Below, piece after piece: positions 3,081 to 59,127 of a stretch of DNA of 64,000 nt. Source of the stretch: Saprospira grandis DSM 2844. GTDB lineage: Bacteria > Bacteroidota > Bacteroidia > Chitinophagales > Saprospiraceae. The stretch is from positions 813,600 through 877,599 of the forward strand of contig NZ_JH719942.1 of assembly GCF_000275825.1 (NCBI RefSeq), given 5' to 3'. The position numbers and the translations under genes are program-made. The notes beneath the pieces were generated by a model. That model saw only the letters and a program-made list of their open reading frames with translations. It made no database searches and was not told the origin of the DNA. Within the stretch, counting starts at the first letter, position 1; each line of letters opens with the position of its first letter.

Positions 3081-3312
3081 CGCGAAGCGCCTTGGCCACA
3101 ACAAACCCTTTAGGGTGCAGTTCGACGACCAGAGGGAGTAACCGATCTGCAGGCAGGGCTGGCTCAAAGGGCCGTCAGGCCCGCAGGCCTAGCGATGTGA
3201 AAGGGGGGCCACAGGCCCGACCGAGTTTTTGAGCGTAGCGAAAAACGAAGGGCCGAGCAGACCTGCGAGCCCTGAAACGTAGCGCCGACGAGCGTAGCGA
3301 GGCGGAGGCCCC
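3081..3312 (-). repeat. Modular GC-rich intergenic repeat R1 (type A, reverse)
   Basis: The type A unit covers 3186-3312, read on the minus strand from GGGGCCTCCGCC to the tail ATCGCTAGGCC. The variable hairpin is a GTTTTT/AAAAAC stem. A second module at 3096-3142 holds the ACAACAA...TTCGACGACC...GGGAGTAA signature seen again at 6908, 11622, 19163, 49378, 58693 and 59168. It lies between convergent genes. Confidence 0.85.
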
Positions 3313-3325
3313 AAAACATCATAAA

Positions 3326-6889: not shown

Positions 6890-7150
6890 AGGCCTTCGCT
6901 GCGGCGGTTACTCCCTTCGCTCGTCGAACTGGCGCCCTAAAGGGCTTGTTGTCGTTCTGGGGCTCACTGATGTTTTGGGGCCTCCGCAGCTTCGCTGCGG
7001 CGCTACGTTCCGGGGCTCGCAGGTCTGCTCGGCCCTGCGGCGCAAGCGCCTGGGTCTGCGGCTGCGCCGCCCCCCTGCACATCGCTAGGCCAATCTGCGG
7101 CTGCGCCGCACTGCGCCTTCGGCGCAGCCCAACTGAACTTAATTGGCCTA
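6890..7150 (+). repeat. Modular GC-rich intergenic repeat R2 (type A, forward)
   Basis: The type A unit runs 6977-7091, from GGGGCCTCCGC to ATCGCTAGGCC. Its variable stems are CCGCAGC/GCTGCGG, GGCGC/GCGCC and GCGGC/GCCGC. A TCGTCGAACT module (6908-6954) precedes it. A further arm to 7148 closes with ATTGGCC against GGCCAAT. Confidence 0.85.
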
Positions 7151-10692: not shown

Positions 10693-11553
10693 TTATTCTT
10701 CTTCTGTTTTGGCCTCGGCGGGTTTTTCACTCTTTTGCAAGCGATAACTTAGGGCAAAAGAAGGCGTAAACCCAAGCACTTGATGATAGGCCGTGGCCAA
10801 ATCAATTTGTAGCTCGTCTAGGTCTAAGCCCAAACCAAAAGAAAGCTGGCTCAAATCACTGAGCTGCATGCCCGCTCGCAACTTAAATACCTTATGGGCC
10901 TGATACTCAATACCGGCCTTGGCCCCAAAAGGCTGATTGTAAATATCTTTTTCTAGGGCCGCATAAATCCCCACTTTTTCAGAGGGATGATAGGCCAAAC
11001 CCAAATTAAAAAGGGCCGGCAGACGCTCGTCCAATTGGCCCAATTTGGCATGTACCGGATTATATACATGCGCTGCTAATGTCAATTCTTCAGTAATTTT
11101 GGCCGTCAAGCCCAACTCAAAGGTAAAACTATTGGCCGAGCCATAATTCGGAATCCGTGTCCCCAAATAATCTAATTGTACCCCCAAAGCAAAACGCTCC
11201 GATAGCTTTCTGGCATAGGCCAAGCCAATTTTTTGCTCGTTATAGGCCGAAAAACCAAAGTAGTTCAGCGTCAAACCAAAGGTCCCCTGATTATTTTCTA
11301 AGGGATAGGCCGCCGCAAATAAAAAGGAGTTGAGCCCCTCGGCCAAAAATCGCCGCTCGCCATAGGCCGAAAAGCTCAATTCTTCTAAAAAAGCAAGGCC
11401 AGCCTGGTTGCTGTAAGCGGCATTGATGTCGGTAAAAGCAACCGATGCATTCCCCAAGGCCGCCCCTCTGGCCGCAGCCGATTGAGGTTGGCCCTGCTGG
11501 GCAAAAAGTCCAAAAGCCATACTGGACAAAAGAAGAGTGTAAAGCGTTCTCAT
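10693..11553 (-). CDS. PorV/PorQ-type outer-membrane protein
   Basis: This 286-residue protein has a signal peptide (ending GLFAQ) and the family's typical start to the mature chain: AARGAALGNASVAFTDINAA followed by NQAGLAFL. These are FadL-fold outer-membrane barrels; PorV and PorQ serve type IX secretion, but most paralogues have no proven role. The C-terminus is an unusual charged tail (KSEKPAEAKTEEE). It is the first gene of a probable two-gene unit with the helix-hairpin-helix barrel protein. I cannot tell PorV, PorQ and paralogues apart from sequence alone. Confidence 0.75.
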   Translation of the reverse strand: MRTLYTLLLSSMAFGLFAQQGQPQSAAARGAALGNASVAFTDINAAYSNQAGLAFLEELSFSAYGERRFLAEGLNSFLFAAAYPLENNQGTFGLTLNYFGFSAYNEQKIGLAYARKLSERFALGVQLDYLGTRIPNYGSANSFTFELGLTAKITEELTLAAHVYNPVHAKLGQLDERLPALFNLGLAYHPSEKVGIYAALEKDIYNQPFGAKAGIEYQAHKVFKLRAGMQLSDLSQLSFGLGLDLDELQIDLATAYHQVLGFTPSFALSYRLQKSEKPAEAKTEEE

Positions 11554-11589
11554 AGTTTTTGTAATTTGCTGATGATGTTGGTTTTTTTT

Positions 11590-11810
11590 GGGGCCTTCGC
11601 TGCGGCTTCGCCTTGCGGCGGTTACTCCCTTTGGTCGTCGAACTGCGAACTAAAGTTCTTGTTGTCGTTTCGCAGCTCGCTGCTATTTTGGGGCCTCCGC
11701 CTCCCTTTGGTCGTCGGCGCTACGTTTCGCAGCTCGCAAGTCTGCTCGGCCCTTCGCCGCTTTCAGCGGCTCGGTCTGGCCTAACGGCCACTGCTGCACA
11801 TCGCTAGGCC
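11590..11810 (+). repeat. Modular GC-rich intergenic repeat R4 (type A, forward)
   Basis: Two heads lie in tandem. The first (11590-11689) carries the TCGTCGAACTGCG module. The full unit (11690-11810) has variable stems GCCGCT/AGCGGC and GGCC/GGCC and the tail ACATCGCTAGGCC. The 160-bp palindrome copy P3 starts inside this tail. Confidence 0.85.
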
Positions 11811-11966
11811 AAATGGAAGCCCTGCGCTTCGGCCATTCTTTGATAAAAACTTCAGGCTAGTCAAGGCATTTTTTAAAGGCATAGCCCTAGCTATGGCTGA
11901 GAAAAATAAGGCAGAATAGCAGGAAATTAATTCAAAGGATAGAAGTGGCAGGGCTTTCATTTGGCC
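11807..11966. repeat. 160-bp long palindrome, copy P3 (diverged)
   Basis: The outer arms GGCCAAATGGAAGCCCTGC and the reverse complement of the right end differ at one base. The core TTTTTTAAAGGCATAGC starts at offset 62, exactly as in copy P2 (58819). The apical stem CATAGC/GCTATG is kept with a changed loop. The outer arms are unrelated in sequence to P1 and P2 yet still pair. Confidence 0.75.
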
Positions 11967-12123
11967 TTCGGCCAAAGGGAGCAAGGCAGCCAGCGCTTGG
12001 CCGCCCAACAAATTACATAATTCAGTAGCCTTCTACAAAAGAGGCTTGGCTTTCTTAAAGTTTAATTAAAGCTGAAAGCAAAAAATAAGCTTGTCGCTCA
12101 TGGCCTTAAGACTGGGCCGCTAA

Positions 12124-19126: not shown

Positions 19127-19134
19127 TTTTTTTT

Positions 19135-19462
19135 GGGGCCTCCGCTGCGGCGGGCGCTACGTTTACTCCCTTCGGTCGTCGAACTGCGGACTAAAGTCCT
19201 TGTTGTCGCAGCTCGCTGAGTTTTTGGGGCCTCCGCTGCGGCGGGCGCTACGTTTACTCCCTTCGGTCGTCGAACTGCGGACTAAAGTCCTTGTTGTCGC
19301 AGCTCGCTGAGTTTTTGGGGCCTCCGCCTCGCTTCGCTCGTCGGCGCTACGTTTCGCAGCTCGCTATTCGCTCGGCCCTGCGCAAAAAAACAAGTTTTTT
19401 GCTGGGTCTGCGGCTGCGCCGCACTGCTACACATCGCTAGGCCGGGCGGCTGCGCCGCCCCC
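19135..19462 (+). repeat. Modular GC-rich intergenic repeat R6 (type A) with 91-bp tandem duplication
   Basis: 19135-19225 and 19226-19316 are identical 91-bp copies of a type A head plus the TCGTCGAACTGCG module. A full unit follows to the ACATCGCTAGGCC tail at 19443. The central hairpin of the full unit is GCAAAAAA/TTTTTTGC. A GGGCGGC/GCCGCCC hairpin ends the block. Confidence 0.85.
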
Positions 19463-38743: not shown

Positions 38744-38857
38744 GGGGCCTCCCGCCTGCGGCGGGCGCTACGTTTCGCAGCTCGCTTTTCGCTCGGCCCT
38801 TCGGCAGCTCCGCTGCCTCGGTCTGGCCTGACGGCCACTGCTGCACATCGCTAGGCC
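38744..38857 (+). repeat. Modular GC-rich intergenic repeat R13 (type A, forward)
   Basis: Head stem CCCGCC/GGCGGG, central stem GGCAGC/GCTGCC, third stem GGCC/GGCC, tail ACATCGCTAGGCC. It occupies most of the 187-bp gap between the receptor and the DUF5689 gene, which read in the same direction. Confidence 0.85.
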
Positions 38858-45431: not shown

Positions 45432-45562
45432 GGGGCTGCCCCTCGCCTATCGGCTCGGGTCGGGCTGTGTCGGGGCTCGCTATTCGCTCGGCCCTGCACA
45501 AAAAAAGCTGCGCTTTTTTGCTGGGTCTGCGGCTGCGCCGCCCCCCTTTCCATCCCTCAGCC
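45432..45562 (+). repeat. Modular GC-rich intergenic repeat R15 (type B, forward)
   Basis: Central stem CAAAAAAAGC/GCTTTTTTG, third stem GCGGC/GCCGC, tail CCATCCCTCAGCC. Palindrome P1 is inserted directly after the tail. Confidence 0.85.
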
Positions 45563-45721
45563 AGATTTAATCGCGCTGCTTTGGTCGTAGTTTGCTATGA
45601 ATTTTTGGCTAAGCCAGCTATTTTTTAAGGGCATAGCCTTCGCTATGGCCGAGAAAAATAGGGCCGACTAGCGGGAAATTGCTGCAAACTATAAAAGTGA
45701 GTGCGTTTAAATTTGGCTATA
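45559..45721. repeat. 159-bp long palindrome, copy P1
   Basis: The ends are AGCCAGATTTAA and TTAAATTTGGCT (one mismatch when paired). Nested inside are TAGTTTGC/GCAAACTA and the apical CATAGC/GCTATG. It differs from P2 at 4 of 160 positions. It is followed by a second AGCC and then GTCGCTGCGCTCC, the sequence that directly follows the tail in R12. Confidence 0.85.
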
Positions 45722-45792
45722 GCCAGTCGCTGCGCTCCTTTGCGGGCGCTGCGCACCCTGCTCCATCCAAAAGAGAGCAAGGCCAAGCAAAA

Positions 45793-54500: not shown

Positions 54501-54632
54501 GGCTGAGGGATGGATAAGGGGGCGGCGAAGCCGCAGACCAAAGGCTTTTGAGCGAAGCGAAAAAGCCTGCAGGGCCGAGCAGACCTGCGAGCCCTGACAC
54601 AGCCCGACCCGCCCGCAGGGCGGGGCAGCCCC
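54501..54632 (-). repeat. Modular GC-rich intergenic repeat R18 (type B, reverse)
   Basis: Central stem AGGCTTTT/AAAAGCCT, head stem CCGCCC/GGGCGG. On the minus strand the tail CCCTCAGCC continues straight into TGCGGCCCTTTGGGCC. That makes it an empty site for palindrome P2, where the same flanks are split. Confidence 0.85.
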
Positions 54633-58495: not shown

Positions 58496-58658
58496 AATCT
58501 GGTTCGCTTAATTTTTTTGGCAAATGTATTTGGAATCCGAAAATACAAAATTTATTAGGCTTCAGCCAAGCAAAAAGGGAAAAGCCATTTTTTTTTTCGC
58601 TTTTCTAAAAAACTATTGTTTATCTGTCTTTTATAGCTTATTTTATTGCCTTTTTTTT

Positions 58659-58822
58659 GGGGCTGCCCACTCGCTTCGCTCGGGTCGGGCTGTGTACTCC
58701 CGTTGGTCGTCGAACTGGCGCCCCTATAGGGGCTGGTTGTCACAGCTCGCAGCTCTGCTCGGCCCTGCGGCGCAAAGCGCCTGGGTCTGGCCCTTTGGGC
58801 CACTGCTTTCCATCCCTCAGCC
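58659..58822 (+). repeat. Modular GC-rich intergenic repeat R19 (type B, forward)
   Basis: Central stem GGCGC/GCGCC, third stem GGCCC/GGGCC, a TCGTCGAACTGGCGCCCC module inserted between head and core, and the tail CCATCCCTCAGCC. Palindrome P2 follows the tail directly. Confidence 0.85.
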
Positions 58823-58981
58823 AGATTTAATCGCGCTGCTTTGGCCATAGTTTGCTATGAATTTTTGGCTAGGCCAGCTATTTTTTAAGGGCATAGCCTT
58901 CGCTATGGCCGAGAAAAATAGGGCCGACTAGCGGGAAATTGCTGCAAACTATAAAAGTGAGTGCGTTTAAATCTGGCTATT
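58819..58981. repeat. 159-bp long palindrome, copy P2
   Basis: Perfect 12-bp terminal inverted repeats AGCCAGATTTAA/TTAAATCTGGCT. Inner stems are TAGTTTGC/GCAAACTA and CATAGC/GCTATG. Nearly the whole element folds as one imperfect hairpin. It is followed by GCC and then TGCGGCCCTTTGGGCC, the sequence that directly follows the tail in R18. Confidence 0.88.
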
Positions 58982-59127
58982 GCCTGCGGCCCTTTGGGCC
59001 TGCAAGACGCAGAAAAGCGGTATTCGTCGCTGCGCTCCTCATGCTTTTATATGTCCCCGCCCACCCACCCCTTTTCGGGATTCCTTAAAGGAATCCCTCG
59101 GGGTAGTTGGGCCATTTTGGTCCAAAC

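What the first reader, a model, noticed from the sequence alone, without database searches (positions are those of the whole stretch)
11807..11966. Third palindrome copy keeps length and pairing but not end sequence
P3 is 160 bp, as are P1 and P2 measured between the same outer pairs. The core starts at the same offset (62) and the apical CATAGC/GCTATG stem is identical, but its outer arms (GGCCAAATGGAAGCCCTGC and complement, one mismatch) are unrelated to AGCCAGATTTAA. It also sits in a type A tail, not type B: the outermost bases match the tail it follows (GGCC after CTAGGCC; AGCC after CTCAGCC). Ends appear to be matched to the host repeat while hairpin shape is held constant.
Basis: seen in the sequence. 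Interest (0 to 1): 0.65.

Follow-up and report, generated by a model that had tools for sequence, protein, structure and literature searches.

The report
Mobile hairpin in dispersed intergenic repeats
The 160-base palindrome is one copy of a small mobile DNA hairpin that inserts at one exact spot, facing one way, in a repeat present about 890 times per Saprospira genome; it belongs to an apparently undescribed family that keeps its length, fold and tip across the Saprospiraceae while its arm sequences change.

Summary
The palindrome is real (fold z = -7). G000 (Saprospira) holds 52 full copies: subfamily A (P3 type, 23) and B (P1/P2 type, 29). All follow CTMRGCC in the dispersed "tail" repeat, in one orientation. 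At four orthologous tails in sister genomes, removing 159 bp plus one GCC restores the empty site, so this is a precisely inserted, non-autonomous, MITE-like element. Its first four "palindrome" bases (GGCC/AGCC) are target sequence, also present in empty tails, which explains most of the "ends match the host repeat" effect. A subfamily/tail link is real (B 29/29 in CTC tails, A 20/23 in CTA tails), but three A copies sit in B tails. Outer arms of A and B are not unrelated: 13 outer pairs identical, 9 changed on both sides, 1 on one side, none broken. The tip is found in 23 of 398 Saprospiraceae genomes, capping 157-165-bp palindromes with different arms and 2-5-bp target duplications; its helices covary (11 of 16 pairs). 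Constant length, fold and tip with changing ends is a family property. No mobilising enzyme was found; no Rfam match and no description found.

The parts
11807..11966 (+). P3 palindrome, subfamily A; first 4 bases GGCC are target, element proper 11811-11966 (last 3 bp and the 3' GCC deleted here, kept in G005)
11860..11916 (+). conserved core at the hairpin tip: GTCAAGGC-ATTTTTT-AAAGG-CATAGC-CCTA-GCTATG-GCTGA-GAAAAAT-AAGGCAG
   Evidence: same core in 16 genera of Saprospiraceae, helices covary
11580..11810 (+). host 'tail' repeat, A type, ending CATCGCTA|GGCC (insertion point after GGCC)
11967..12005 (+). 3' part of the host repeat (TTCGGCCAAAGGG...) after the insertion
45559..45718 (+). P1, subfamily B; element proper 45563-45721, then GCC 45722-45724
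58819..58978 (+). P2, subfamily B; element proper 58823-58981, then GCC 58982-58984
38838..38857 (+). example of an empty A-type tail end (CTGCTGCACATCGCTAGGCC followed directly by other sequence)
54502..54513 (-). example of an empty B-type tail end (CCATCCCTCAGCC|TGCGGCCC on the - strand)

Best explanation
P3 is one copy of a non-autonomous, MITE-class mobile element of 159 bp that is almost wholly one long imperfect hairpin. In Saprospira it inserts directly 3' of (CTM)RGCC in the roughly 890-copy tail repeat, always in the same orientation, leaving GCC on both sides. The most likely mover is a cut-and-paste (DDE) transposase supplied in trans, reading the element ends; relatives in other genera with clear terminal inverted repeats and 2-5-bp duplications point that way. 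The tails act as a safe landing site. Arms evolve freely as long as they pair and keep length; the tip, with two conserved internal loops, is held nearly constant, probably because the folded strand (DNA or RNA) is what a protein recognises. Shown: precise insertion, fixed site and orientation, pairing-preserving change, constant length, conserved tip. Inferred: transposase class, that GCC is a duplication rather than element-borne, the safe-landing role of tails, and the role of the tip.
For: Four orthologous filled/empty pairs where deleting 159 bp + one GCC gives flank alignments of 486-603 columns at 96.2, 98.5, 96.7 and 95.9% identity with 0, 0, 0 and 3 gaps (alignments); the outgroup G002 is also empty at the P2 and G001:67933 sites, so these read as gains. 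52/52 full copies in tails, one orientation; in a 400-kb sample 113 tails and 6 full palindromes, all in tails. Many different 3' contexts follow the insertion (TGCGG, GCTCATC, GTTTGG, AGTCGC, ATTTTGG) and the same contexts follow empty tails. Palindrome similarity is only weakly tied to tail similarity (Mantel r -0.02 to 0.29), so it moves between tails. Pairing: 15/52 pairs changed on both sides, 97.8% paired against 89.0% shuffled and 39-50% slid; across genera 11/16 core pairs, 95.2% against 87.4% and 41-61%. Relatives: direct repeats 3 (TTA/TAA), 3, 5, 4 (CTAG/TTAG), 2 (TA) and lengths 157-165.
Against: No autonomous copy or transposase with matching ends was found. Strict orientation and one exact site are unusual for a symmetric MITE. 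Empty sites could partly be precise deletions between the two GCCs. Gene conversion between tails certainly happens (P2 tail replaced in G000) and could spread the palindrome. The duplication length differs between genera, which is odd for a single transposase.
Confidence: 0.72

Rival explanations
1. The palindrome inserted once in an ancestral tail and spreads by gene conversion / recombination among the ~890 tails, not by transposition.
For: Same site and orientation in every copy; A and B homologous along their length; tails recombine (P2 tail replaced in G000; inversion with breakpoints in tails); subfamily/tail-type association.
Against: Flanks at four gain/loss loci are unchanged on both sides right up to the insertion; 3' contexts are non-homologous between copies, so conversion tracts would have to end exactly at GCC; weak palindrome-tail correlation; relatives elsewhere have real target duplications.
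Confidence: 0.15
2. Single-strand (HUH/Y1, IS200/IS605- or REP/RAYT-like) transposition: the folded strand is cut 3' of GCC on both sides, giving fixed orientation, with the right end GGCY able to pair with either the 5' RGCC or the 3' GCC.
For: Orientation- and strand-specific insertion 3' of a fixed short motif; fully hairpin element; Y1 transposases exist in these genomes.
Against: The Saprospira Y1 genes are flanked by their own different small palindromes (GGAGGGTTGAAACCCTCC, GCCTAGGGACAAGCCCCTAGGC); other-genus relatives show 2-5-bp duplications, which this chemistry does not make (general knowledge).
Confidence: 0.12
3. It is a structured regulatory RNA module of the tail (e.g. terminator or mRNA stabiliser), not a mobile element.
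For: Strong pairing-preserving evolution with conserved internal loops; intergenic.
Against: Precise insertion polymorphism; no Rfam match even at relaxed threshold; relatives in other genera sit at unrelated sites with target duplications. It could still have such an effect secondarily.
Confidence: 0.08
4. IS110-type, bridge-RNA-guided insertion.
For: IS110-family elements insert at one point in repeated palindromes (PMC1525189).
Against: No IS110 transposase (PF01548) in four Saprospira genomes, with positive controls ringing.
Confidence: 0.02

Closest known systems
Bacterial MITEs (ERIC, Correia/NEMIS, Nezha, RUP)
   Same: Short, non-coding, multi-copy, inverted repeats, short target duplications, foldable RNA/DNA (features as listed in PMC3733652).
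   Different: Here the middle (hairpin tip and its internal loops) is conserved across genera while the ends are not, length is held near 159 bp, and in Saprospira site and orientation are fixed. In classical MITEs the ends are the conserved part (general knowledge).
Insertion sequences that target REP repeats (ISPsy8, ISPa11, ISPpu9/10, ISRm22, IS1397, IS621)
   Same: Always the same point of a dispersed palindromic repeat; ISPsy8 makes a 3-bp direct repeat (PMC1525189).
   Different: Those are full insertion sequences with transposase genes; this is a 159-bp hairpin without a gene, and the target repeat is a different one.
REP / RAYT system
   Same: Palindromic intergenic repeats; Y1 transposase genes are present in Saprospira.
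   Different: REPs are 20-40 bp; the Saprospira Y1 genes carry other palindromes.

Membership tests
MITE | short, non-coding, multi-copy | tested here: met
   159 bp, 52 full copies in G000; the in-frame peptide seen in many cores is broken by stops in others and phase bias is weak
MITE | terminal inverted repeats | tested here: met
   arms pair along almost the whole length; in Saprospira the two ends are offset by 7 bp, the outer RGCC being target
MITE | target-site duplication / empty sites | tested here: met
   four empty orthologs, GCC on both sides; 2-5 bp in relatives
MITE | mobilised by an insertion sequence sharing its ends | tested here: inconclusive
   no autonomous copy found in Saprospira matches or for the G501/G626 ends; most IS families not searched
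REP/RAYT | 20-40 bp palindrome flanking its own Y1 transposase gene | tested here: not met
   159 bp; Y1 genes flanked by other palindromes
IS110 / bridge RNA element | IS110 transposase in the genome | tested here: not met
   PF01548 absent from 4 genomes
Described structured RNA (Rfam) | match to a covariance model | tested here: not met
   no hit in the window at gathering threshold, none in 11500-12100 at E <= 1; only two weak, chance-level microRNA-model hits in five relatives
Integron attC site | folded-strand recombination by IntI | not tested
   no integrase search done

The most novel reading that the evidence does not exclude
A mobile hairpin whose arms are rewritten as a matched pair (self-templated or by relentless compensation) at constant length, and which moves or acts as a folded strand recognised through its conserved tip rather than its ends, so that the same core is carried by elements with different ends and target duplications.
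Probability: 0.2. Interest if true: 0.8.

Novelty: new variant of a known kind. Interest (0 to 1): 0.55.

Why it matters
Elements are normally grouped by conserved ends. Here ends turn over completely while length, fold and tip persist across a bacterial family, which suggests that the folded form is under selection and gives a natural covariation data set to find out what reads it. The four insertion polymorphisms in Saprospira make the movement directly testable.

Tried and rejected
IS110 guide-RNA model: no IS110 gene. RAYT model: Y1 genes have other REPs; the odd left halves in L032/L033/L066/L068/L179 are such REPs joined to A halves. Coding remnant (core reads FFEGIAxAMAEKNNE in one frame): mean column entropy by codon phase 0.73/0.62/0.81, in-frame stops in several genera, no Pfam or plasmid hit. 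Co-amplification of tail plus palindrome as one unit: weak Mantel correlation and empty orthologs. Autonomous partner via the ends GTAACGAGCAAATAATAAR in G501/G626: only ~158-bp copies or host genes. Viral contigs: no core match. Plasmids: no convincing match. The paper on S. grandis Lewin is not held; library searches found no description of this repeat, which is not proof of absence.

Full report
WHAT IS THERE. P3 (11807-11966) is a 160-base imperfect palindrome with outer arms 95% complementary and a fold far below shuffles (z = -7.1). The genome (G000, 4.50 Mb) is a Saprospira: the sister genome G001 has the contig length of S. grandis Lewin NC_016940.1. G000 has 52 full copies in two subfamilies: A (P3, 23) and B (P1 and P2, 29).

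WHERE IT SITS. Every full copy follows CTA|GGCC or CTC|AGCC at the end of a dispersed repeat, the 'tail', in one orientation (the core is asymmetric, so orientation can be read). The tail signature CATCSCTMRGCC occurs 871-931 times in each of four Saprospira genomes and 2-4 times when read backwards. In a 400-kb sample there were 113 tails and 6 full palindromes, all in tails.

IT IS AN INSERTION. Empty tails read CTAGGCC|TGCGG or CTCAGCC|TGCGG. In syntenic DNA of G001, G005 and G002, four loci differ by the palindrome alone. Deleting 159 bp plus one GCC from the filled allele gives alignments to the empty allele at 96.2% (P3, G005/G001), 98.5% (G001:67933/G005), 96.7% (P2, G001/G005) and 95.9% (G001:59527/G005), three of them without gaps. 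G002 is empty at P2 and at 67933 as well, so those look like gains. Hence the outermost GGCC/AGCC of the 'palindrome' is target sequence, which explains why it matches the tail.

DO ENDS MATCH THE TAIL? A: 20 in CTA, 3 in CTC. B: 0 in CTA, 29 in CTC (p = 1.4e-11). Background tails in the 400-kb sample: 60 CTAGGCC to 49 CTCAGCC. So there is a subfamily preference, strict for B, but not copy-by-copy matching: three A.C and two G.T terminal pairs occur. Palindrome distance correlates only weakly with tail distance, and the 3' contexts vary.

SHAPE IS HELD. In the alignment of 52 copies 97.8% of cells pair (89.0% shuffled, 39-50% slid) and 15 of 52 pairs changed on both sides. Between A and B consensus the 23 outer pairs are 13 identical, 9 doubly changed, 1 singly changed, none broken, and arm identity is above chance: the arms are homologous, not unrelated.

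THE FAMILY. A pattern for the core, with up to 3 mismatches, is present in 23 of 398 Saprospiraceae genomes, 16 of 112 genera, often in many copies, and its reversed control in none. These copies are palindromes with wholly different arms: element length 159 (G501, G730), 158-159 (G720), 157-158 (G626), 165 (G488), with direct repeats of 3 (TTA/TAA), 5, 2 (TA), 4 (CTAG/TTAG) and 3 bp respectively (not every copy shows a perfect repeat). Thirteen further single loci fold into hairpins spanning 160-167; in some others the predicted hairpin runs on into the flanks, so those spans are not element lengths. Core pairs covary across genera (11/16 changed on both sides), e.g. the apical closing pair C-G, A-T, G-C. 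One relative (L257 around 2,640-2,740) has replaced nearly both inner helices but keeps AAGGC and AACGATG. Conserved loops plus freely covarying helices mean that a specific folded shape, not just palindromy, is maintained.

MECHANISM. Best supported: a non-autonomous element moved in trans. Target duplications in relatives favour a DDE transposase, but none with these ends was found. Fixed orientation favours strand-specific chemistry; the known Y1 genes carry other repeats and IS110 is absent. Gene conversion among tails is real (G000 P2 tail) and may add copies. The closest precedent for the targeting is insertion sequences that enter REP repeats at one point, some with 3-bp repeats (PMC1525189).

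LIMITS. GCC duplication and an element-borne GCC cannot be told apart where every target is GCC. Only the 64-kb syntenic region was compared for empty sites. The pattern scan requires the core, so more diverged members are missed, and conservation of the core is partly by selection of hits. 394 other Bacteroidota sampled with a stricter pattern gave none. Pair counts lean on structures derived from these sequences, and copies within a subfamily are closely related, so cells are not independent events. The literature library is partial.

Noticed in passing
whole genome; window 3186-3316, 6894-7093, 11580-11810, 19127-19443, 45433-45562, 58656-58822 and others: The host 'tail' repeat is present about 890 times per Saprospira genome; its internal hairpins (GGCCTTCGGCC, GCGGCTGCGCCGC, AAAAAGCTGCGCTTTTT ...) differ between orthologous loci, as if hairpin cassettes are swapped.
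   Followed up: partly
window ~54503 and ~62833: Relative to G001 and G005 the window carries an inversion of about 8.3 kb whose breakpoints lie in two oppositely oriented tails; both tails are empty here and filled in G001.
   Followed up: partly
L032, L033, L066, L068, L179: A-palindrome halves joined to small REPs (ATGAGGGTTGAAACCCTCAT) of the kind flanking Saprospira Y1 (RAYT) genes.
   Followed up: partly
L159 around 1160-1370: In a Saprospiraceae MAG one copy sits in the loop of a host hairpin (AATGAATAGAGAATGAA ... TTCATTCTCTATTCATT), extending the palindrome.
   Followed up: no
core, window 11863-11919: One frame of the core reads (A)FFKGIALAMAEKNKAE*, with E/D and synonymous-looking changes across genera, but with stops in several; probably not coding.
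   Followed up: partly
L064 560-730: A third, single Saprospira palindrome type with ends GAACTCATTTAA/TTAAATGAGTTC carrying the core outside any tail.
   Followed up: no
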